Assembly: GCA_963693315.1 (NCBI GenBank)
Contig: OY856188.1
Coordinates: forward strand, 265,355,114 to 265,419,113
Reading direction: 5' to 3'
DNA from: Diogma glabrata
Lineage: Eukaryota; Arthropoda; Insecta; Diptera; Cylindrotomidae
DNA length: 64,000 bases
Shown here piece after piece: positions 5,951 to 60,400 of this stretch. How positions within the stretch are numbered: position 1 is the first letter of the stretch; each line of letters opens with the position of its first letter. Both the position numbers and the translations under genes were made by a program. The notes beneath the pieces are model-generated. The model had not been told where the DNA came from, searched no databases, and saw nothing but the letters and a program-made list of their open reading frames with translations.

Positions 5951-6285
5951 CCGGTGGATGAATGTAAAACAAATTGTACGTAGAATTTATAATGCTGTTG
6001 TATACGGTGAATATGGATGACAGCTAAGTTGTTGTAGCAATATAGCACTATTAGTTCATGCACTGGTGGATAAATGTAGAACAACTTGGGCGTAAACTTT
6101 ATAATGTTGTTGAATACGATGAATGTGGATGACTGATGAGCGATTGTAGCACTATGAAACTATTGATTCATACAGTGGTGGATGAATGTAGAATAACTTG
6201 TACGTAAAGGTTATAACGTTGTTGAATACGGTGAATGTGGATGACTGCTGGGTAATTGTAGGTTAAATTAATTTATAACTGTTGA
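5951..6285 (+). repeat. 112-bp tandem repeat, three copies
   Basis: Units begin at GGTGGATGAATGTA (5953), GGTGGATAAATGTA (6065) and GGTGGATGAATGTA (6177), exactly 112 bp apart. Each carries a TTGTTGAATACGGTGAATGT-like block. Copies are moderately diverged and the last is incomplete. Confidence 0.85.
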
Positions 6286-9298: not shown

Positions 9299-9445
9299 AT
9301 ATAAAAATAATTACGTAAAATTCTGTGTTAGCCTAATTTATACCAAAATAATTACGTATAATTCTGTGTTAGCATAAATTATATAAAAATAAATACGTAT
9401 AATTCGTTGTTGGCATAAGTTATATAAAAATAAATGTGAAGAAAA
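9299..9445 (+). repeat. About 47-bp tandem repeat, three to four copies
   Basis: Units contain AAAATAATTACGTATAATTC, then TGTGTTAGC, then an ATAAATTATAT-like block, repeated with a period of about 47 bp. The last unit is degenerate. Confidence 0.75.
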
Positions 9446-14672: not shown

Positions 14673-17600
14673 AATTAGTTAGACATGTTTAGCACACTAA
14701 ATATGAAATCTTCATTATTAAGACTCTTTGAATATCCGAAGACACCATGTCAACTATAAAGGAAGGAGATGAGGAAAATGGAAGGAATGGGGATAAAAGG
14801 ATAACTATACTAATTGTTTTAAATGATTATGGACATTTTCTTTAAATGCCTGAGGGGAAAATTCATCGGGAAATACAGAGGCAGGCATTGAGTTCCACAA
14901 TTTGGCCACTCTATTACAATAGTCGTTCTGAAAGGACACAGTTCTACAACGAGGTATTTGTACAACAAATGGATGGGATAACTCGGCAGCTCTTGTTTGT
15001 CGATTATACTGCGCACACGATGGAAGGATATTTTGAATTTCCTTAGAGGAGAATTCGCTAAAGTTATATTTATAGTAGATTGATAATTCAGCCACATTTC
15101 TTCTGTGCTGGAGTAAATCAAGCTGGTCCATTAGTCCATTGGACCAATCAACCGTATTGCTTTTCTCTGTACAGAGTCTAGACATTTTAATGTTGACTGA
15201 CAAGCACCTCCCCTCACATGACAGCAGTACTCAATAGATTGACGAAAAAAGGACTTGAAGATTAGCAAAATTTGCTCGGGATTGAAATACTTTTTACATC
15301 GACTCAAGAATCCTAATTTTTGCATTGCAGATTTAGCGAGGTTGAACACATGTTTATTCCATTTCGGGGTATTTTGAATATCCACTCCAAGAAGTCTAAC
15401 TGATTCAACCTCACGCAATTCCTCATGGTTTATTTTAATAGGGAAATTTTTATGTCGCTCTATTCGTGAAAGACGGCATAGTTTGGTTTTGGTTGGATTA
15501 AATGAAAAAAGATTACAATCTCCCCATTCCATTATACGCTCCAGATCTTTGTTGATAGAATCAATTAGTAGCTCTCCATCAGTGGTACCTGCAGTATGAG
15601 ATCGAAATTTAGGAGATGAATGTGATGCATGCAATGTCATCAGCAAAACTGTGGATTGGGTGCACTGTGGAAATAAGTAAGTCATTAATGTACAGAAGGA
15701 ACAAGGTTGGTGAGAGTGCAGAACCTTGGGGAACCCCAGCATTGGGTGTGAAAATATTGGATGTGATACCACCTAAATTAACATGAAATTGGCGACCTGA
15801 AAGAAAACTATGAATCCATGAGACAGTAAGATGGTCTATGCCATAAGATTTTAATTTAGCTATGAGATTTTTATGCCACACTTTATCAAATGCTTTAAAA
15901 ATGTCAAGTGAAATACTGAATGTTTCACCATGGTTTTCCAGCGATTTGTTCCAGAGATGGGATAAGTAGGCTAACAGACCACCTGTTGCATGATTTCTAC
16001 GAAAACCATACTGTTTATCATCAATAATTCGCGACACTTCCAAACAATCTATTAAATTGTAGTTAACATATTTTTCAAATATTTTAGCTAAAACCGACAG
16101 AATTGCAATTGGTCTATAATTGTTAGGATCTATCTTACTGCCTTTCTTTGGTATGTGTTGAACGCTGGCCAGCTGCCAAGAGTTGGGAAATATTCCGGTT
16201 TATAAGATAAATAGAAAACTGTTGTTAAAATTGGAGTTAGTTGCCTAGTAAAATTTTTAAGAATGAGGGGTGGAATACCGTCGGGGCCAGCGGATTTGCT
16301 GATATTGATAGAAAGAAGCATTTTCCGTACAATATTGCAACGAAAAATAATTGGTTTCATTTTCGTTACAACTGGGGGAATGAGTGTAGGAGAATGGGGA
16401 GGTTCCACTATGTTTGAGTTTTCTGCGAATATACGACCCATAAGATCCGCCTTCTCTTTCGAGTCGCTCACGGGAATGTCATTCAGAACTAAGGTTGGAA
16501 TAGAGGATCGAGTAAAATTTCTCTGGACTGATTTAACTGCCTGAAAGAAACTACGTGAGCCAGATGGGTGCTCGGCGAATTTCTTTGCTTTCTTCTGGAT
16601 AAACGCTGCTTTGTCCAAGTCTATTTTGTATTTACTAATATTTCTGGCTTTCTTATAGGCGCTATGGGTTTCAGGTGTTTTATTAGCGTTATATGTCTTA
16701 AATGCTTTGCGTTTATTCCTCACTGCCTCATCAACATCCCAGGTGAACCAAGGCTCAGTTTTAGGAGTGGTTAATCGATTTGGAATAAACCGCCGCATTC
16801 CGTATTTTATGATTTCGGACATTCTTATTGCCGATGTGCTAGGATCTTGATCAACACAACAAATAGTTTTCCAAGGCGTTTCATCATAAAATATTCTTAG
16901 TCCCTCCCAGTTGGCGCGTTTATAGTTCCAAACGCGACGAGGATTTGCTTTAATTTGTGTCGGTGATGTAAATTGTACTATTGCTGATATTAGTAGATGG
17001 TCCGATGTTCCGAGGGGTTGTTCAACTTTTGTTTTCGTAGTATCTGGGTCGTTTGTCAAAAACAGATCCAGCAAATTATTGTTATGATGTGAATTGTCTG
17101 AGATTCTAGTGGAGCACTCTATCATTTGCGTCAAAGCGTGATAATCTGCGAGTATCAGTTCAGCTTGTCTTCCTACGTCGTCAGTGCGCGATGAATACTT
17201 AAGCCATTCTTTATTATGCATATTAAAGTCTCCAAGAATGGCCAGTCTTGCTTTGGGGTAGTCCGTGGTAATCTTGTCTAGATTAGCCGATATTTGATCG
17301 AAAAAGGGACATTCTGGGGGAGAATTTGGGGATCTATATAATCCTATTATAAACATAGTTTCATCAACACTTGAGATCATTAGTGCTATAGAATTATGGA
17401 GCTTAGAGTTCAACTCGTAGGCCTTAATTCTCATACATGAAAGTGAATCTCGGACAAATACACAGATACCATGCTTGTTATAAAAGGAATGTTCCAATTC
17501 GAAACTAGGTATCCGGTATTTATCGGGATCCAACTTCGATGCTTTGCCACTAACAATTGTTTCGGTAAGAAACAATATGTCAGGTTTATTTTTTTCAAAG

Positions 17601-17716
17601 TAGTGATGAACCTCGTTTAGATTCAAATTGAGACCTCTTAGGTTAGTGAAGTCAATGCTAAGCTGTTGGTTTACTCTGCGGCCATTTTGTTGAGACAAAA
17701 AATTACCCTTTGACAT
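14673..17716 (-). pseudogene. LINE ORF2: AP-type endonuclease + reverse transcriptase, frameshifted
   Basis: The endonuclease (17716 to about 16950) shows PDILFLTET, a GICVFVRD-type strand, the LYRSPNSP box, LGDFNMHN (catalytic Asp/Asn) and GTSDHLLI (catalytic His). RT follows, with SAGPDGIPP (about 16280), DIFKAFDKVWH (motif A Asp), NAGVPQGSALSP (motif B, about 15720) and SFADD (motif C catalytic pair, about 15645). The C-terminal part includes LLGVDI, the AIRLIG box and LDLLQHRRNVAELS. Frameshifts lie near 16180, 15640 and 15135, and the protein ends at 14805. The active-site residues survive but the frame is broken. Function when intact: nick target DNA and prime reverse transcription of its own RNA. 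Confidence 0.88.
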
Positions 17717-18565
17717 TGCAGGCTAAGCTACTGAAATTCGGCCAGGCCTTAATTTCAACACTAAACAGTACAAAAGAAACTGGGTATCTCTGTCACAAAA
17801 ACACGATAGCAGATTTCATGCAACAGTAGCACGATAAGAGAAAAGCAAAAAAAATGGGGACACAAAAGACACTAACAAAATTGAAGAGTACAAATAAAGG
17901 GTTAAATTCTAAGTTCCTAACTTTTGTCAAAAAAAAGACATTTCATAATCAACTAACTGATATTTTCCAACTCCCAAAATAAGTCCGAGGTGGGAGGAGC
18001 TAGATCATGTCAAAAAACTTCACAAAAAAATATCAATCAATCCAAAAAAAATCACTACCAACTAAAACGAAATTTTTTGTTTTCTGTTACCAAGACAAAT
18101 TTACGCTTTAAAATAATAAATAAATTTATTACATCAAAGCAATAAAGGTAAAATTTTACCTGCCTACCCCTTGGTAACAGTAAACACAAAATACCAAATC
18201 ATTTTTTAATAAAGAACAATCTCACCAATTATATATTTGTACGCGTCCGTTCTTCAATACTTTTATTTTTATAAACACTAACACAAACACTATAACACTT
18301 GTTAGCTACTTATTAACACTTATCAACACTTATAACACTTATTTTTCTATTTTCGATTATATTTGTTTTTTTTGTTCTTTTCCTTTTAACATTTCGGAGA
18401 CCACCTTCTTCGTCTGACTCCGAAATAAAAACTTGCATTTTCTTCGTTTCCGTTTTGCCTATTCGAAAGCGATGTTAATGACGAAGGACGCTCCAATTTT
18501 GCACACGGTCCTCTTTTTAATGGAGATCTCGGTTGTATCTGATTTGAAACTGGAATTCTTCACAC
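17717..18565 (-). other. Probable LINE 5' region
   Basis: There is no coding signal. Repeated TTAACACTT/ATAACACTT motifs lie at about 18290-18345, and a GC-richer patch at 18395-18540 could be the promoter-bearing 5' UTR. Assignment to the LINE is inference from position. Confidence 0.35.
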
Positions 18566-21528: not shown

Positions 21529-21542
21529 ATTTCCTAAAATTT
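21529..21542 (+). repeat. Left target-site duplication of the retrozyme array
   Basis: ATTTCCTAAAATTT here is repeated exactly at 23779-23792 on the far side of the array. The true duplication is 12-14 bp because the outer A and T bases are ambiguous. Confidence 0.85.
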
Positions 21543-21601
21543 GCCCAAAGATTCGAGCCGGGCACTGACGAGGGTAGGTTCGAATCCGATCCGAAACACG
21601 T
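21542..21601 (+). ncRNA. Hammerhead ribozyme, 5'-truncated at the cleavage site (unit 1)
   Basis: This copy starts with UGCCC, the 5' strand of stem I, and contains CUGACGA, stem II and GAAAC, but lacks the stem III 5' strand and GUC triplet. It corresponds exactly to the downstream product of self-cleavage. Confidence 0.85.
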
Positions 21602-22032
21602 AAAAAATGTGAATTGTAGTTTTTTTCTGAGAAACTTCAAACCATACCTTTGAATTGAAAATATTCCAATTACTTCTTTACTTACTTGAGTTTAATTGAT
21701 CTCAAAAATCCAAAATAAAATTGAAATTCCCTTAATGTAGTCTAATGTTAATACATATAGAACTACAAATTGACCAAGTGTCAGCCATTGATTTCACATT
21801 GATTGGAAACAATCAATAATGACTATACAATCGTGACTTAGGATGTTAATTAGAATAGAAATGTTCCCCATTCTATGAATTCACACAAAGTATTGTCTAG
21901 AAATTTAATGCAAAAAATCCCATATAATGTAAAAGCATTTCCATAATATGGTGTCTAATGACAGTGGAAAAATTCAACTTAAGTAAAATAAATAAGTGAT
22001 GAAGAAGTTTCAACTTTGAAATTGTCATCGCC

Positions 22033-22103
22033 TTAACGGCGTAATCGATAGCGTGTCTGCCCAAAGATTCGAGCCGGGCACTGACGAGGGTAGGTTCGAA
22101 TCC
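22033..22103 (+). promoter_or_regulatory. Pol III-like A box / B box overlapping the ribozyme (also at +516, +1032, +1548)
   Basis: The B box GGTTCGAATCC (22093-22103) fits the tRNA consensus and lies in stem II and its loop. An A-box-like TAACGGCGTAATCGATAGCG precedes it at 22033-22052; the diverged copy at 57.4 kb has the better A box TGGCGAAATGGATAGCG. That wording resembles arthropod tRNA-Arg 5' halves. Inference: internal pol III promoter of a SINE-like transcript. Confidence 0.55.
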
Positions 22104-22117
22104 GATCCGAAACACGT
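22051..22117 (+). ncRNA. Type III hammerhead ribozyme (unit 1/2 junction)
   Basis: Stem III is CGUGU (22052-22056) with ACACG (22112-22116), extendable by a G-U pair. The cleavage triplet is GUC, with the cut after C22057. Stem I is UGCCC (22058-22062) with GGGCA (22076-22080), closing a 13-nt loop. Core box CUGACGA is at 22081-22087. Stem II is GGGUAGG (22088-22094) with CCGAUCC (22102-22108), one G-U and one A/G mismatch, loop UUCGAAU. Core box GAA at 22109-22111 is followed by A15.1. Every invariant core nucleotide of the hammerhead is present. Stem III is the open helix, which defines type III. Expected role: self-cleavage of multimeric transcripts into unit-length RNAs. Confidence 0.93.
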
Positions 22118-22566
22118 AAAAAATGTGAATTGTAGTTTTTTTCTGAGAAACTTCAAACCATACCTTTGAATTGAAAATATTCCAATTACTTCTTTACTTA
22201 CTTGAGTTTAATTGATCTCAAAAATCCAAAATAAAATTGAAATTCCCTTAATGTAGTCTAATGTTAATACATATAGAACTACAAATTGACCAAGTGTCAG
22301 CCATTGATTTCACATTGATTGGAAACAATCAATAATGACTATACAATCGTGACTTAGGATGTTAATTAGAATAGAAATGTTCCCCATTCTATGAATTCAC
22401 ACAAAGTATTGTCTAGAAATTTAATGCAAAAAATCCCATATAATGTAAAAGCATTTCCATAATATGGTGTCTAATGACAGTGGAAAAATTCAACTTAAGT
22501 AAAATAAATAAGTGATGAAGAAGTTTCAACTTTGAAATTGTCATCGCCTTAACGGCGTAATCGATA

Positions 22567-22633
22567 GCGTGTCTGCCCAAAGATTCGAGCCGGGCACTGA
22601 CGAGGGTAGGTTCGAATCCGATCCGAAACACGT
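22567..22633 (+). ncRNA. Type III hammerhead ribozyme (unit 2/3 junction)
   Basis: Identical to the copy at 22051-22117, shifted by 516 bp; the predicted cut is after position 22573. Confidence 0.92.
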
Positions 22634-23082
22634 AAAAAATGTGAATTGTAGTTTTTTTCTGAGAAACTTCAAACCATACCTTTGAATTGAAAATATTCCA
22701 ATTACTTCTTTACTTACTTGAGTTTAATTGATCTCAAAAATCCAAAATAAAATTGAAATTCCCTTAATGTAGTCTAATGTTAATACATATAGAACTACAA
22801 ATTGACCAAGTGTCAGCCATTGATTTCACATTGATTGGAAACAATCAATAATGACTATACAATCGTGACTTAGGATGTTAATTAGAATAGAAATGTTCCC
22901 CATTCTATGAATTCACACAAAGTATTGTCTAGAAATTTAATGCAAAAAATCCCATATAATGTAAAAGCATTTCCATAATATGGTGTCTAATGACAGTGGA
23001 AAAATTCAACTTAAGTAAAATAAATAAGTGATGAAGAAGTTTCAACTTTGAAATTGTCATCGCCTTAACGGCGTAATCGATA

Positions 23083-23149
23083 GCGTGTCTGCCCAAAGAT
23101 TCGAGCCGGGCACTGACGAGGGTAGGTTCGAATCCGATCCGAAACACGT
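23083..23149 (+). ncRNA. Type III hammerhead ribozyme (unit 3/4 junction)
   Basis: Identical to the copy at 22051-22117, shifted by 1032 bp; the predicted cut is after position 23089. Confidence 0.92.
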
Positions 23150-23598
23150 AAAAAATGTGAATTGTAGTTTTTTTCTGAGAAACTTCAAACCATACCTTTG
23201 AATTGAAAATATTCCAATTACTTCTTTACTTACTTGAGTTTAATTGATCTCAAAAATCCAAAATAAAATTGAAATTCCCTTAATGTAGTCTAATGTTAAT
23301 ACATATAGAACTACAAATTGACCAAGTGTCAGCCATTGATTTCACATTGATTGGAAACAATCAATAATGACTATACAATCGTGACTTAGGATGTTAATTA
23401 GAATAGAAATGTTCCCCATTCTATGAATTCACACAAAGTATTGTCTAGAAATTTAATGCAAAAAATCCCATATAATGTAAAAGCATTTCCATAATATGGT
23501 GTCTAATGACAGTGGAAAAATTCAACTTAAGTAAAATAAATAAGTGATGAAGAAGTTTCAACTTTGAAATTGTCATCGCCTTAACGGCGTAATCGATA

Positions 23599-23665
23599 GC
23601 GTGTCTGCCCAAAGATTCGAGCCGGGCACTGACGAGGGTAGGTTCGAATCCGATCCGAAACACGT
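23599..23665 (+). ncRNA. Type III hammerhead ribozyme (unit 4/5 junction)
   Basis: Identical to the copy at 22051-22117, shifted by 1548 bp; the predicted cut is after position 23605. The partial unit downstream ends at about 23779. Confidence 0.92.
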
Positions 23666-23778
23666 AAAAAATGTGAATTGTAGTTTTTTTCTGAGAAACT
23701 TCAAACCATACCTTTGAATTGAAAATATTCCAATTACTTCTTTACTTACTTGAGTTTAATTGATCTCAAAAATCCAAA

Positions 23779-23792
23779 ATTTCCTAAAATTT
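23779..23792 (+). repeat. Right target-site duplication of the retrozyme array
   Basis: Exact repeat of 21529-21542; see that entry. Confidence 0.85.
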
Positions 23793-34929: not shown

Positions 34930-35242
34930 CAGTTAGGCGATTATATTATATTATGTGAATCCACCAATTAAATCCAACATCTGGGCGATTATTTTATATT
35001 GTAAAATTCAACCGATTAAGTCTAACTGCAATACACAACATTTAGGCGATTATTTTATATTGTAAAATTCAACAGTTTAAGTCTAACTGAATTACACAAC
35101 ATCTAGGCGATTATTTTATATTGTAAAATTCAGCCGATTAAGTCTAACTGAATTACACAACATCAAGGCGATTATTTTATATTGTAAAATTCAACTGATT
35201 AAGTCTAACTGAATTACACAACATCTAGGCGATTATTTTATA
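34930..35242 (+). repeat. 61-bp tandem array, left part
   Basis: GCGATTATTTTATATTGTAA recurs at 34985, 35046, 35107, 35168 and 35229, exactly 61 bp apart, with a degenerate unit from 34937. Each unit also holds GATTAAGTCTAACTGAATTA and ACACAACATCTAG. The array resumes at 36814 after the Penelope-like insertion. Confidence 0.9.
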
Positions 35243-35630: not shown

Positions 35631-36813
35631 TTATGGGTTTAAATTAAACAATGGAGATTCTTCTAAATTCATCAGGTGTTCTGTTTTTGCAATATAAAAT
35701 GATTCATATGCATCCAATTTCCATTTGTTTATTACAGGTTTGATTATTTTTGAATTTCTAAAATCTATTTTATGGTTTGATTGTATCATATGCGCTGCTA
35801 CACTTGATTTGTGTGTTTTTTTTTGTAAAGTGGCTGCTCTGTGTTCCTTAATTCTCGTCTCATAGTCCCTTGATGTTTGTCCTATATATACATCTTGACA
35901 ATCCTCGCACTTGATTTGGTAAATGCCGGATTTACTATTTGATCCTTCTCTATCTTTAAAATTATTTAGCTGGGTTTTTATGGACGTAGTTGGTCTTGTT
36001 ACTATTTCTATTTCATGCTTGTGGAAGACTTTCTGCAATTTATTTGTTATTTTTGGATAAAACGGCAGACTTATTCTTTTGTATGTTTTATGTTTATCAA
36101 GTATCGGAGAAAGATTGGTTAGTTGTTTCTTATGATGTTTAACTCTATGCTTTTCAATGATTATATTTGCAAATTCTATTGTATAACCGTTAGCTATTGC
36201 CGCGTTCTCTATGTATTTAACTTCTTCTTGAAATTCTTTTTCTTCCATCGGAATGTTGTACAAACGGTGGGCCATGGAATGAAATGCAGCTTGCTTGTGT
36301 GAAATGTGATGATGTGAATCTGAAGTAATAAATCTATTGGTGTTGGTTTGTTTTCTAAATATCCCAAATTTAATTTTATTTGTTGGTAGTTTGATAATTC
36401 TGAAAAACAAAAAGTTTAAACAATCATTTTCTTCTACTTCCAATGTAAATTTAATTGTTGAATGTTGTGAATTCAGTTTTTCTAGTACTGTTGAAATATC
36501 TGATTTTTTAACAATTGCAAAGATGTCATCCACATATCTATACCATATTCTTGGAAACAGGCTGAAGTTTTCTTTAACATTTGATTCAAATTTACTCATG
36601 AACACATTACTAATATATGGGGCCAACTTGCTACCCATCGTTGTTCCAGATGTTTGTTTATAAAACTTTTTTCTGAACTGGAAAAAGCTTTGGTCCATGC
36701 ATGTTTTAGCTACTTTTGTTAAAGCACTAACTAGTGGATATGGAACGTTGTTTTTCATGAGATGTTCTTCAAGGTATTCTATTGCTGGAATCACTGGGAT
36801 ACTGGGAAACAGC
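35631..36813 (-). CDS. Penelope-like reverse transcriptase–GIY-YIG endonuclease (N-terminus missing)
   Basis: The frame is open from the insertion edge at 36813 through 387 codons after the first ATG at 36794. Near its start is the LFPSIP box of RT motif A; the catalytic Asp just upstream has been lost by truncation. GTTMGSKLAPYISNVFM (motif B) and RYVDDIFAIV (catalytic YVDD, about residue 87) follow. After a connector of about 200 residues comes GIYQIKCEDCQDVYIGQTSR (about residue 291), the GIY-YIG nuclease with a CxxC pair, then RIKEHR. This domain order is diagnostic of Penelope-like elements. In intact elements the nuclease nicks the target and the RT copies the RNA there. The nuclease here looks complete, whereas full-length proteins are roughly twice this size. 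Confidence 0.92.
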
Positions 36814-37012
36814 GCGACTATTTTATATTGTAAAATTTAACCGATTAAGTCTAACTGAATAACACAACATCTAGGCTCTTATTTTGTCAAATTCAACCGA
36901 TTAATTCTAACTGAATTACACAACATCTAGGCGATTATTTTATATTGTACAATTGAACCGATTAAGTCTAGCTGAATTACACAAGATCTAGGTGATTATT
37001 TTTATATTATAC
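36814..37012 (+). repeat. 61-bp tandem array, right part
   Basis: About three further units of the array at 34930-35242, more diverged. The first starts with the duplicated target sequence of the Penelope-like insertion. Confidence 0.88.
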
Positions 37013-37664
37013 AATGAATACACTAAGTCATACAACAGCTGATTCGAACCAAGTTTCAGAGGAGAATAATCATAAAAAACGTTGATTGGGGAAATTGTTA
37101 AAACTTGTTTGGATGTGACAAATACTATATAAACAATAATTTGCTAGATTTCTGGTCTATTGGATTTTGAATCTGGAACTAGCAACACCTAAAAGGAAAA
37201 ATATCGTTGGAATATTCAACAGATATTCAGGAAGAGAAGATACAGTGCTACGTCAACATGGGTTGCTGATGATTCCAGACGTTAAACAAAAGGAAAAAAT
37301 TGAGTATTCATTCTGTTATTATTATTTAATTATTTAATTATTTATTTATTATTTTGTGAAATAGATTTTTTGAAGCGAAAACTTCTTTAGCCGCGTTATG
37401 AAATTTTGTATGGAGTAAAATTTGTATATTCGCGTCATCAAGTTTTATATGCGATAGTGATTTGCAAACGGCAACAATTTGCATTAATACCAATGAATGT
37501 TTTGCGCTGGAAGATTTGTAAAATTTAAACTTGTTGATCTATGGGTGTGACAACTACGCGTACTTTAGTCCCTGCTATTGGCATATGAGTTATCTTGAGA
37601 TATCGTATACCACTGGCAATAGTAATGCAATCTCATTAGCCAAAGTGATATTTTAAAGACTAAA
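37013..37664. other. Non-coding interval
   Basis: A TTATT/TAATTATTTA-rich low-complexity tract lies at about 37316-37360. No gene recognised. Confidence 0.4.
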
Positions 37665-41219: not shown

Positions 41220-41640
41220 ACATCAATACGTTGCCGGAAAATTATAATCAAAATTTCAAAAATATTGTTAAATTAAATAAAATCAAACTTTTTCAAAATT
41301 CCAAAAATTATAATAAAATCAAATATTTAAATTTTTTCTAAATCCCAATAATATTTCAAAAATTTTTAAAAATTCAAACTTTTTCCAAAATTCTAAAAAT
41401 ATTGCAAAAATTATTACAAAATCCAATATCGAAAATTTTTTCCAAATTCCAAAAATTATAATAATATCAAAAATTAAAAATTTTTCAAAATTCTAAAAAT
41501 ATTCCAAAAATTCTTACAAAATCAAAAATTAAAATTTTTGCCGAAATTCTAAAAATATTGCAAAAATTATTACAAAATCAATAATACAAACTTTTTCAAA
41601 ATTCCAAAAATATTTCAAAAACTGTAACAAATTCAAAAAT
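41220..41640. repeat. Degenerate AT-rich tandem array, about 60-bp period
   Basis: CAAAATTCTAAAAATATT, CAAAAATTATTACAAAATC and an AAAATTTTTTC-type block recur in order with a period near 60 bp and many substitutions. Confidence 0.65.
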
Positions 41641-42360
41641 TTCCATGTCCAATTTCATTTTAAATTACATTTACGTCATAAAAACAGCTTCATTTTTTTT
41701 TCCGAAAAATTGGCTAAAAAATAAATGAAATCATTTTTTGACACAGTTGACATTATTTTTTGACAAACTTATAATGCCATAATTCTCAATAATAATAATA
41801 AAATTTCATTTCAAAGAAACAATTTTATTTTTTTTCCAAAAAATTGGGTAAAAAAATAAATAAAAATCTTTCTTTTGACACACTTGACAACATTTTTTTG
41901 ACAAACTTATAATGCAAAAATCTAGTTTTTGGTCTCACATACCAATCCCGACCATCAAAATTTCTCCAAATTTAATGTTCCTACTCGTAATCACTTAAAA
42001 TGAACGTTTTTAAGCCAAAAATATGAAAATTTGCTATTTTTGACACACATAATGATTTTTTTGACACACTTCCGGTACAGTTATCGAACACAGCGTCCTT
42101 TCGGACCTGTCCCTGGCGAATACCTATTACTAGAAAAATAATTTTTGAAATCCCTCCAGCGGTTTTCCCTGCAGCGTAGGTAATGACGGACGGACGGCCG
42201 GCCGGCAGACAGACATACATTTTTTTTTTTGCTTTTTTAGAATCAGTAGGTCCTAAAACGTCGAGAAATGCCAAAAAAAGTAGGGTCTGCGTCGGACCAG
42301 ACGGTGGAAGTTATACTTCTTTGGCCATTCGCTCGCACACACGCACACAGACAGACAGAT
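41641..42360. other. Non-coding, with GACGGACGG-type patches
   Basis: A GACGGACGGACGGCCGGCC run (about 42186) and an ACACACGCACACAGACAGAC run (about 42336) flank a poly-T tract. Runs of this kind are common in dispersed insect repeats; class not determined. Confidence 0.4.
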
Positions 42361-57110: not shown

Positions 57111-57323
57111 TTATTTGTTTTACTTCAAAATTAAAATAACGTAATCGATATATAAAAAAGTTAATTACCAGTATTTACAATCATATCATTCTCTTCCTTC
57201 TCTACCGCACACACATACACATAGTAATTTTAATTTTACGGTTCCGTAACTTATATTGACAGAGGTGTAGAGCCAAGAGTCTCAAAAACCCTTGAACAAA
57301 CATATTCGGACATTCGGAATTTT

Positions 57324-57575
57324 GTGAGCCATTAAACTCAAGTAACTAAGGAAATAATTTGAATATTTTCAATTCAAAGGTATTGTTGGAAATAAATCAG
57401 AAAAAACTCTGTTTTTCTCTTTTACGTGTTTTGGTTGGGATTCGAACTCATAACCTCATCAGTGCCAAGAATGAGTTCCAAATCCTTTGGCAGACACGCT
57501 ATCCATTTCGCCACCAATGCGATGATATTGTGAAGTTGAAACTTCATCATCACTCTAATCACGTAAGTTGAATTT
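57324..57575 (-). mobile_element. Monomeric diverged relative of the 516-bp unit
   Basis: On the minus strand, about 250 bp align with the ribozyme-containing half of the 516-bp unit. The order is AATTCAACTTA, GATGAAGTTTCAACTT, the A-box TGGCGAAATGGATAGCG, the hammerhead, ACACGTAAAA, ACCTTTGAATTGAAAATATT and TTACTTGAGTTTAA. The copy stops at GCTCACAAAA, the same point at which the 3' end of the array at 23.78 kb stops. This suggests a real 3' terminus there. Confidence 0.8.
57424..57499 (-). ncRNA. Diverged type III hammerhead, probably inactive (G12A)
   Basis: Stem III CGUGU/ACACG and the GUC triplet are kept. Stem I is UGCCAA with UUGGCA (6 bp), where the array has UGCCC with GGGCA. The core is CUGAUGA. 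Stem II is GGUU with AACC. The second core box reads AAAA instead of GAAA (position 57432), which should abolish activity. The B box GTTCGAATCCC sits in the stem II loop. Confidence 0.85.
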
Positions 57576-59619: not shown

Positions 59620-59997
59620 GTGGGCATAACACTATTTATCGGAAATGTTTTAACATTATTTTGGGGATTTCTCCATTAAATTTCTAGACAGTACTATTGT
59701 GTGAATTCATAGAATGTGTAATATTTCTATCATAGTCAACATTCTAAGTCACGAGTGTATAGTCATCATCGATTGCTTCCAATCACTGCGAAATCAATGA
59801 ATGACACTTAGTCAATTATTGTCAAATATGAGCTTGCGTATCAGACAACATTTTGGGGAATTTTTAATTATACGAGATTTTTGTGAGCCATTAAACTCAA
59901 GTAACTAAGGAAATAATTTGAAAATTTTCAATTGAAAGGTATTGTTGGAGATAAATCAGAAAAATTCTTTTTTTCTCTTTTACGTGTTTCGGTTGGG
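59620..59997 (-). mobile_element. Diverged 516-bp-type element, minus-strand part
   Basis: On the minus strand this aligns with the 516-bp unit from the hammerhead 3' core (CCAACCGAAACACGTAAAAG, 59978-59997) through ACCTTTCAATTGAAAATTTT, TTACTTGAGTTTAA, TGTCATTCATTGATTTCGC, TGACTATACACTCGTGACTT and TGTGTGAATTCATAGAATG-type landmarks into ATTAAATTTCTAGACA (complement). It includes both halves of the unit, so the 516-bp composite is old. It ends abruptly in stem II of the ribozyme. Confidence 0.75.
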
Positions 59998-60400
59998 TAA
60001 CTTAAGTAATTAGAGTGATGTTGAAGTTTCAACTTCAAACTATCATCCCATTGGTGGCGAAGTGGATAGCGAGTCGGCCAAAGGATTTTGAAGTCATTCT
60101 TGGCACTGATGTGTTATGAAGGGTAATCCAAACTCCATGATTGAAATTCAAACCTCTGTCCCTCACACACCAAATTTACCTTAACAGAAATGTTCATAGT
60201 TGTTTTCGTTTTTCCTTTACACACAATTTTTTGTATACTCCATCCATGGTCATCATCTACTATAGCTTCCGTTTAAAAAAAAATTATGAACATAAAACAG
60301 TTGTGTGATATTTCCCAATGTAATTTCCTTTATTCAATTTGTATTCGTAATTCCGCTATTTCCATATAGATTTCCTACAATCGTTTTATAATCCATGTTT
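59998..60400 (+). mobile_element. Ribozyme module fused to repeat body B, plus strand
   Basis: Directly abutting the minus-strand copy, this begins TAACTTAAGTAATTAGAGTG, then TGAAGTTTCAACTTC, A-box TGGCGAAGTGGATAGCG and a degenerate hammerhead (60069-60135). It then continues into repeat family R2, as at 7875-8200, instead of the array body. It is therefore a second composite with the same head and a different tail. Confidence 0.7.
60069..60135 (+). ncRNA. Degenerate hammerhead with covarying stem III
   Basis: Stem III is GAGU with ACUC (the array has GUGU with ACAC), the triplet is GUC, and stem I is GCCAA with UUGGC. The core boxes have decayed: CUGAUGU replaces CUGAUGA and G12 is missing, so it is inactive. 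Confidence 0.7.

What the first reader, a model, noticed from the sequence alone, without database searches (positions are those of the whole stretch)
21542..23779. Tandem 516-bp retrozyme-like array with a complete type III hammerhead in every unit
All invariant hammerhead nucleotides (CUGACGA, GAA, A15.1-U16.1, GUC) and three helices are present in a 67-nt motif that recurs exactly every 516 bp. Established knowledge: retrozymes are non-autonomous, hammerhead-bearing elements that occur as tandem repeats and yield circular RNAs. Animal examples described mostly carry type I hammerheads, while the long type III form is typical of plants. A type III, long-unit example in an arthropod would be unusual.
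Basis: partly seen in the sequence, partly recalled or inferred. Interest (0 to 1): 0.95.

Follow-up and report, generated by a model that had tools for sequence, protein, structure and literature searches.

The report
Insect retrozyme with type III hammerheads
This insect genome carries thousands of copies of a small non-coding mobile element whose RNA seems able to cut itself and close into a circle, and many of its insertions look as if that circle had been copied into DNA several times round at the spot where it landed.

Summary
The array is real: four identical 516-bp units plus 174 bp, flanked by a 12-bp duplication. Four complete type III hammerheads (HHRs) are present, not five. Compensatory changes across 28-29 variants support the fold; Rfam Hammerhead_3 gives 27.1 bits, below its 48.5-bit gathering score. 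The genome is an insect's with 3,609 near-identical HHR copies. In 39 insertions examined, 28 of 30 single ones end at unit 174-186 while 5' ends vary, and 21 of 39 have adjacent direct repeats of 9 bp or more (9 of 1,482 mispaired controls). Nine are head-to-head pairs, eight of them with outer ends near 175 and 390. Units within an array are far more alike than between arrays. Best reading: a non-autonomous, non-LTR retrozyme-like element whose circular RNA is copied several laps by target-primed reverse transcription. It differs from described animal retrozymes in its type III HHR, 516-nt unit and a tRNA-like segment overlapping the ribozyme. Cleavage, circles, promoter and helper are untested. 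New variant of a known kind.

The parts
21542..23779 (+). retrozyme array: four identical 516-bp units (21542, 22058, 22574, 23090) plus a 174-bp partial unit (23606-23779); read as one insertion
   Evidence: period check; locus structure
21530..21541 (+). left copy of the target-site duplication TTTCCTAAAATT
23780..23791 (+). right copy of the target-site duplication TTTCCTAAAATT (one or two further bases are ambiguous microhomology)
22052..22116 (+). complete type III hammerhead 1: helix III 22052-22056/22112-22116, C17 22057, predicted cleavage 22057|22058, helix I 22058-22062/22076-22080, CUGACGA 22081-22087, helix II 22088-22091/22105-22108, GAA 22109-22111
   Evidence: covariation
22568..22632 (+). 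complete type III hammerhead 2
23084..23148 (+). complete type III hammerhead 3
23600..23664 (+). complete type III hammerhead 4
21542..21600 (+). incomplete hammerhead of the first unit: lacks the 5' strand of helix III because the insertion starts at the cleavage site
22037..22048 (+). tRNA D-arm / A-box-like segment CGGCGTAATCGA (repeated every unit)
   Evidence: letters; aligned with the perfect A box TGGCGAAATGG of the old 57k copy. In this unit the best A-box score (6 of 8) fell instead on unit 488-498; by hand this site also scores 6 of 8
22093..22103 (+). B-box-like T-arm GGTTCGAATCC inside hammerhead helix/loop II (repeated every unit)
22136..22142 (+). T7 run, the only run of 4 or more T in the unit; would be a Pol III terminator
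23767..23779 (+). inferred priming site of reverse transcription, CAAAAATCCAAAA, where this and most other examined insertions end
57313..57575 (-). old diverged copy (about 76% identical) with hammerhead (its GAA reads AAA), a more canonical A box, and 3' end again at unit 173
59629..60087 (.). old diverged head-to-head copy: (-) arm 59629-59997, (+) arm 59998-60087
15612..17722 (-). LINE-like element in broken frames (endonuclease and RT); an example of a possible helper class, not shown to be the helper
35634..36836 (-). Penelope-like frame (RT + GIY-YIG; the class name is recalled); the other candidate helper class

Best explanation
A non-autonomous, non-LTR retroelement (retrozyme-like) of an insect. 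Inferred life cycle: unit-repeat RNA is transcribed from an existing array; the type III hammerhead of each unit cuts after GUC and frees 516-nt monomers; these are closed into circles by a host ligase. A LINE-type (or Penelope-type) reverse transcriptase nicks a target (A/T-rich by eye) and primes on an A-tract of the circle (unit ~174-186; second site ~376-406). It then runs round the circle, about 1.4 to 10.7 laps in the arrays examined, and falls off at varying points, leaving a mostly homogeneous tandem array with a fixed 3' end, a ragged 5' end and a duplication of about 9-17 bp. When both nicked strands prime, a head-to-head pair of arrays results (twin priming). Shown by sequence: array, duplications, 3' phase lock, head-to-head pairs, within-array likeness, hammerhead fold with compensatory changes, genome-wide dispersal. 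Inferred: self-cleavage, circular template, helper identity, promoter.
For: Exact array with 12-bp duplication. 39 insertions from 38 fetched loci plus the window: single insertions (29 arrays and one 134-bp fragment) end at unit 174-186 in 28 of 30, the other two at 393 and 399. Adjacent direct repeats of 9 bp or more in 21 of 39 against 9 of 1,482 mispaired ends (the longest, 17 bp in L032, lies in an AT run); four more have them set off by filler. 9 of 39 are head-to-head, 8 of these with outer ends at 174-181 and 376-406. The motif CAAAAA(A)TCC occurs only twice in the unit, just 5' of both priming zones. Within-array substitutions 0.26 per pair (213 pairs) against 3.85 between arrays (6,228 pairs). 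33 of 39 loci differ from every other locus by at least one position; the nearest neighbour lies in the same array for 73 of 101 units (15 ties) against 0.87 on average with permuted labels. Copy number within 3 mismatches: 7,946 at unit 129-167, 3,609 at the HHR (21-59), 3,938 at 239-277, reversed controls 0: 3'-anchored, 5'-truncated. HHR: helix I pair 5 occurs as A-T, C-G, T-A and G-C, helix II pair 3 as T-A, A-T, G-T; 0 of 5,000 permutations reach either. Rfam Hammerhead_3 E=2.7e-4. The unit folds better than 100 of 100 shuffles (z=-4.43). Longest stop-free frame of the circular unit 98 aa, no Pfam match.
Against: Rfam score below the gathering threshold; the old copy at 57k gives no Hammerhead_3 match at E up to 10, only Hammerhead_II at E=7. 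RNAfold prefers another fold of the isolated hammerhead by 6.4 kcal/mol, and its folding energy is not unusual (z=-1.21, 23 of 200 shuffles as good). The census pattern fixed helix I pairs 1-4, the core and part of helix III, so those are untested; helix II pair 4 is unpaired in 5 of 28 and does not covary. 18 of 39 insertions lack an adjacent 9-bp repeat, and the old copies have none adjacent. A linear multimeric transcript could also give homogeneous arrays, so the circle is inferred. Two of 30 single insertions, this one included, start at the cleavage site (p=0.013), which suits a linear or opened template there. L054's identical arms prove little, because its unit equals that of another locus; L049's arms differ (5 and 26 positions). 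L064's second outer end is at unit 334. No expression data. Species unknown.
Confidence: 0.8

Rival explanations
1. The template is a linear multimeric transcript of an existing array that escaped self-cleavage, not a circle; otherwise the same target-primed mechanism.
For: Long and homogeneous arrays exist as possible sources (L044 with 10 identical units; a run of units at C1:86170775-86208310); this array and L052 start at the HHR cleavage site, as a run-off on a cut linear RNA would; RNAfold favours a fold without the hammerhead that could protect linear RNA.
Against: It needs uncut RNAs of up to 10.7 units although each unit carries a hammerhead with an intact core; 28 of 30 single insertions do not start at the cleavage site.
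Confidence: 0.15
2. DNA-level origin: ordinary satellite expansion by unequal crossing-over, or re-integration of extrachromosomal circular DNA.
For: Tandem identical units; long satellite-like array at C1:86.17 Mb, where crossing-over probably did act.
Against: 3' ends share one phase and 5' ends do not; flanking duplications without duplications between units; head-to-head pairs with outer ends at two fixed sites; units cluster by array. None of this is expected from crossing-over or DNA circles.
Confidence: 0.02
3. The hammerhead is a relic: the element is a tRNA-related SINE that spreads without self-cleavage.
For: A/B-box-like segments, tRNA model 19.5 bits E=0.063 on the old copy, 3'-anchored truncated copies.
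Against: Compensatory changes keep helices I and II in diverged subfamilies; multi-lap arrays are hard to get without circles or multimers; the A/B boxes lie inside the 175-to-175 unit, not at a 5' head, and a T7 run follows about 100 bases later.
Confidence: 0.03

Closest known systems
Animal non-LTR retrozymes (Cervera & de la Pena 2020, PMC7229834; abstract, passages and Discussion read)
   Same: Non-coding tandem HHR repeats, low GC, duplications longer than 4 bp, dimers to long multimers; circRNA as template for possibly target-primed, tandem-copy reverse transcription was proposed there
   Different: Those carry type I HHRs and give RNAs of ~170-400 nt; here type III and 516 bp. Phase-locked 3' ends, head-to-head pairs and array-wise clustering of units are genomic evidence for the copying step that was only proposed
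Plant LTR retrozymes (PMC4918200, search listing only; features from PMC7229834 and PMC7761336 passages)
   Same: Type III HHR, non-autonomous, circRNA intermediate (inferred here)
   Different: Plants: ~350-bp LTRs, 4-bp duplications, GC above 55%; here 9-17-bp duplications, array ends at varying unit positions, GC 32%
Atypical type III HHRs of HDV-like circRNAs and of termite and dipteran genomes (PMC7936874; passages and Discussion read)
   Same: Type III, 5-bp first stem in helix I, Watson-Crick contact between loops I and II, in insects
   Different: Reported in termite genomes as isolated motifs, not as a mobile array family; loop contact there GCCR/YGGC, here complementarity of up to 13 bases
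pDo500 satellite of Dolichopoda cave crickets (PMC2837043, Background section and passages; PMC2808323, passages)
   Same: Insect, ~500-bp HHR-bearing tandem unit
   Different: Studied as a satellite; no insertion-site anatomy or retrotransposition in the parts read. Its HHR type was not established here
tRNA-related SINEs (general knowledge; papers seen as a listing only)
   Same: A/B-box-like segment, 3'-anchored and 5'-truncated copies, LINE-like duplications
   Different: Self-cleaving motif, tandem multi-lap arrays, promoter-like segment internal and entangled with the ribozyme

Membership tests
Type III hammerhead ribozyme | conserved core, three helices, helix III open, cleavage after NUH | tested here: met
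   (4 hits, 0 in 40 shuffles); compensatory pairs
Type III hammerhead ribozyme | Rfam RF00008 gathering score 48.5 bits | tested here: not met
   27.1 bits, E=2.7e-4 in a 111-nt search
Type III hammerhead ribozyme | self-cleavage | not testable with these tools
   needs in vitro transcription
Animal non-LTR retrozyme (as described 2020) | tandem non-coding HHR repeats of low GC | tested here: met
   (GC 32%, no Pfam match)
Animal non-LTR retrozyme (as described 2020) | no LTR, primer-binding site or polypurine tract | tested here: inconclusive
   array ends lie at varying unit positions in 39 insertions; primer-binding site and polypurine tract not searched
Animal non-LTR retrozyme (as described 2020) | duplications longer than 4 bp | tested here: met
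   12 bp here; 9-17 bp in 21 of 39
Animal non-LTR retrozyme (as described 2020) | type I HHR | tested here: not met
   helix III is the open helix
Animal non-LTR retrozyme (as described 2020) | RNA of ~170-400 nt | tested here: not met
   unit 516 bp; RNA itself not seen
Animal non-LTR retrozyme (as described 2020) | abundant circular RNA | not testable with these tools
   no RNA data
Plant LTR retrozyme | 4-bp target-site duplications | tested here: not met
   9-17-bp duplications in 21 of 39
Plant LTR retrozyme | tRNA-Met primer-binding site | not tested
   -
tRNA-related SINE | A and B boxes | tested here: inconclusive
   A+B consensus score 16 against at most 15 in 400 shuffles, but only 6 of 8 in the A box and best placed at unit 488, not at the D-arm-like site; old copy 8/8 and 9/10; tRNA model E=0.063 on the old copy, below gathering; no ARAGORN hit
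tRNA-related SINE | Pol III transcription from a 5' head | not testable with these tools
   no RNA data; boxes are internal

The most novel reading that the evidence does not exclude
One ~80-nt stretch (22037-22116) serves as ribozyme, as internal Pol III promoter (the T-arm/B box is helix II; the D-arm runs into helix III) and as a switch: loops I and II are complementary over 8-13 nt in 23 of 29 variants and can form an alternative helix that would keep the finished circle uncut. The circle is then the direct template of multi-lap, twin-primed target-primed reverse transcription. That would be a promoter, cutter and lock in a single RNA element of a circular-RNA transposon.
Probability: 0.27. 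Interest if true: 0.87.

Novelty: new variant of a known kind. Interest (0 to 1): 0.68.

Why it matters
How animal retrozymes get back into the genome was only hypothesised: which primer, whether the circle itself is copied, LINE or Penelope helper. This genome probably holds hundreds of young insertions (63 groups with an exact hammerhead in the listed first ~95 Mb of C1) that record the step: fixed priming sites, lap numbers, fall-off points, twin priming, duplications. It also widens animal retrozymes to type III hammerheads and 516-nt units, and suggests how a ribozyme and a tRNA-like promoter can share nucleotides. If circles are confirmed, it is a natural system for multi-lap reverse transcription of circular RNA.

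Tried and rejected
Rejected: satellite or crossing-over origin of this array, plant-type LTR retrozyme, and a chance hammerhead (see rivals and membership rows). A simple Pol III story was not adopted: the T7 run about 100 bases after the A-box-like site should end transcripts after about 120 nt (my estimate), so full units would need read-through. A pattern search for D-arm plus hammerhead in viral contigs found none. The Penelope-like frame in the window was considered as helper; no match to the type III descriptor lies there (type I motifs were not searched), and A-tract priming with 9-17-bp duplications suits a LINE at least as well; not decided. The MAFFT alignment A1 misplaced loop gaps and held rows cut at wrong places, so pair counts were done on structure-anchored parses instead. 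Species not identified: COX1 was located but no letters were left; the cuticle family PF00379 was asked once, met a busy machine and was not repeated. A genome-wide count of paired against unpaired helix I variants did not complete. Rows dropped before the 39-insertion counts: L053 main array (same flanks as L051), L053 piece cut by the locus end, L054:6614-6886 (old), L066:3377-3512 (shares its 3' flank with the main L066 array). From the HHR variants one nested sequence (C1:65092045) was dropped, one with an 8-nt loop (C1:81991242) also, and 2 of 28 could not be anchored for the loop pairs.
Full report
Observation. The array at 21542-23779 is exact: four identical 516-bp units and 174 bp of a fifth. 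It is flanked by TTTCCTAAAATT at 21530-21541 and 23780-23791. The array starts precisely at the predicted hammerhead cleavage site and ends after CAAAAATCCAAAA. Four hammerheads are complete; the first lacks its upstream helix III strand. A type III descriptor finds only these four in 64 kb, and none in 40 shuffles. Rfam gives nothing at gathering score, no hammerhead in a 2.5-kb search to E=10, and Hammerhead_3 at 27.1 bits, E=2.7e-4, when only 111 nt are searched.

Genome context. The assembly G000 has 1.33 Gb in 1,788 contigs. It is an insect's: the odorant-receptor family 7tm_6 has 67 matches, many in clusters, and rings in 0 of 14 control genomes (that this family is insect-specific is recalled). 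A LINE frame in the window has its named best matches in Lepidoptera and an isopod, at 32-38% identity. The 39-nt hammerhead segment occurs 3,609 times within 3 mismatches, the reversed control 0 times. Unit 129-167 occurs 7,946 times and unit 239-277 3,938 times, so copies are anchored at the 3' side and many are cut off before the hammerhead; differing conservation of the segments is a caveat. The exact hammerheads listed reach about 95 Mb of C1 and fall into 63 groups (92 typed positions; two known arrays were entered by one position each).

Anatomy of insertions. I fetched 38 array loci from the places listed, where 40 of 492 candidates were scored and the list was cut, so the sample leans to young, multi-unit copies. 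With the window, 39 insertions were measured. Of 30 single-orientation insertions (29 arrays and one 134-bp fragment), 28 end at unit 174-186 and two at 393 and 399. Their 5' ends are spread, with an excess in the hammerhead/tRNA-like segment 485-60 (11 of 30, expected 17.8%, p=0.011). Two, this array and L052, start within one base of the cleavage site (p=0.013). The 29 arrays run from 1.36 to 10.67 units. Exact adjacent repeats of 9 bp or more sit at both ends in 21 of 39 against 9 of 1,482 mispaired ends; four more (L036, L040, L051, L059) have them set off by filler. Nine insertions are head-to-head pairs with 5' ends facing; eight have one outer end at 174-181 and the other at 376-406; L064 has 178 and 334. 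In 9 of 9 the arm primed near 175 stops, on its last lap, 3-169 nt short of the other arm's outer-end position, as if the second primer were a roadblock on the same molecule. This is a weak argument, because about half of the single insertions (15 to 17 of 30, counted by hand) stop in the same stretch.

Single template. 114 full units were aligned. Substitutions average 0.26 within arrays (213 pairs) and 3.85 between arrays (6,228 pairs). 33 of 39 loci differ from every other locus by at least one position, gaps counted; six do not (L051, L052, L053, L054, L059, L060; L053 duplicates L051). The nearest neighbour of a unit is in its own array for 73 of 101 units, 15 ties, against a mean of 0.87 (maximum 4) in 30 label permutations. 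L044 (10 units), L068 (9 units, 5 substitutions from the nearest locus), the window array and both arms of L038 and L054 are internally identical; for L054 this says little, as its unit equals that of another locus. L049's arms differ by 5 and 26 positions, gaps included. So most insertions look as if one RNA had been copied several times over; a circle is the simplest such template, a linear multimer the main rival.

Ribozyme evolution. A pattern census found 598 matches with CUGAUGA (reversed control 0; some may be among the 3,609). The pattern fixed helix I pairs 1-4, the core and part of helix III, so these could not be tested. From 29 distinct hammerheads (25 from the 32 sequences printed there, this unit, and three old copies), helix I pair 5 is A-T 18, C-G 6, T-A 1, G-C 1, unpaired 3; helix II pair 3 is A-T 11, T-A 11, G-T 5, unpaired 2. 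On 28 of them 0 of 5,000 permutations reach the observed pairing at either position, while helix II pair 4 (unpaired in 5) does not covary; relatedness of copies is not removed by this test. Loops I and II are complementary over 8 or more bases in 23 of 29, against 2% of shuffled loops; but loops of different copies fit each other nearly as well (mean run 8.66 against 9.31 for own loops). Of 14 loop-loop pairs tested on 26 anchored sequences, pair 6 shows covariation (p=0.0008), pair 5 p=0.085, the others 0.21 or more. RNAfold gives the hammerhead fold -15.0 and the alternative helix -21.4 kcal/mol, pseudoknots not counted; the energy of the 70-nt stretch is not unusual (z=-1.21), that of the whole unit is (z=-4.43). 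The loop pairing may be the contact that speeds hammerheads, or a lock that protects circles; PMC7229834 argues that the HHR in animal circles is probably blocked in vivo in some way.

tRNA-like segment. The unit holds CGGCGTAATCGATAGCGT, which can form a D-arm (by hand), and GGTTCGAATCC, a B box that is also hammerhead loop II. The A+B consensus score is 16; 400 shuffles reach at most 15. The A-box match that one search scored best in this unit (6 of 8) lies at unit 488-498, next to, not on, the D-arm-like site. The old copy at 57313-57575 has a perfect A box (TGGCGAAATGG) and 9 of 10 in the B box, and the tRNA model gives 19.5 bits, E=0.063, below its gathering score. ARAGORN finds no tRNA. 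The only T run of 4 or more in the unit (T7) follows the hammerhead; it is T5-T7 in the four old copies printed that cover it. Promoter activity is therefore possible, not shown.

Old copies in the window. 57313-57575 (-) ends at unit 173, like the young arrays; 59629-60087 is a decayed head-to-head copy with an outer end at 413. The phase lock thus seems to predate the young subfamily. No adjacent duplication is left. The 57k copy gives no Hammerhead_3 match and its GAA reads AAA.

Literature. Animal retrozymes with type I hammerheads, ~170-400 nt, duplications above 4 bp, and a hypothesis of circle-templated, possibly target-primed copying by LINEs or Penelope elements are in PMC7229834 (abstract, passages, Discussion read). 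Type III hammerheads with loop pairing in termite and dipteran genomes are in PMC7936874 (passages, Discussion), with insects mentioned as 'in preparation' in PMC7761336 (passages). pDo500 has a ~500-bp unit (PMC2837043 Background and passages; PMC2808323 passages). PMC6155905 and PMC3088659 were read in passages. The searches listed no paper that I recognised as describing a type III animal retrozyme or twin priming of retrozymes; most listed papers were not opened and most subscription journals are not held, so this is weak evidence of absence.

Verdict. A well-supported, dispersed, apparently recent insect retrozyme-like family with type III hammerheads; a new variant of a known kind. Its main value is the genomic record of multi-lap, twin-primed, target-primed copying.

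Noticed in passing
G000 C1:86170775-86208310: Long satellite-like run of retrozyme units at ~516-bp spacing (CUGAUGA variant), minus strand then two plus-strand units: a retrozyme insertion that seems to have grown into a satellite.
   Followed up: partly
window 34975-35242 and 36814-37015: 61-bp tandem repeats on both sides of a Penelope-like RT/GIY-YIG frame (35631-36836, -), possibly part of its terminal repeats.
   Followed up: no
G000 C5:20072602/20090504 and C1:340085418/340102658: Full-length COX1 matches in large contigs in pairs about 17-18 kb apart on the same strand, scoring like the match on C1788: perhaps tandem insertions of whole mitochondrial genomes.
   Followed up: no
L051 and L053 (C1:232.46 Mb and 220.35 Mb): The same retrozyme insertion with the same flanks in opposite orientation 12 Mb apart: segmental duplication or assembly duplicate.
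   Followed up: no
unit 162-170 and 370-379: CAAAAATCC / CAAAAAATCC occurs only at these two places of the unit, just upstream of both priming zones; possibly a recognition motif of the helper RT.
   Followed up: partly
window 5953-6261, 9299-9433, 41253-41645: Other tandem arrays (112 bp x 2.8; 41 bp x 3.3; AT-rich 55/100 bp) without a match to the type III hammerhead descriptor.
   Followed up: no
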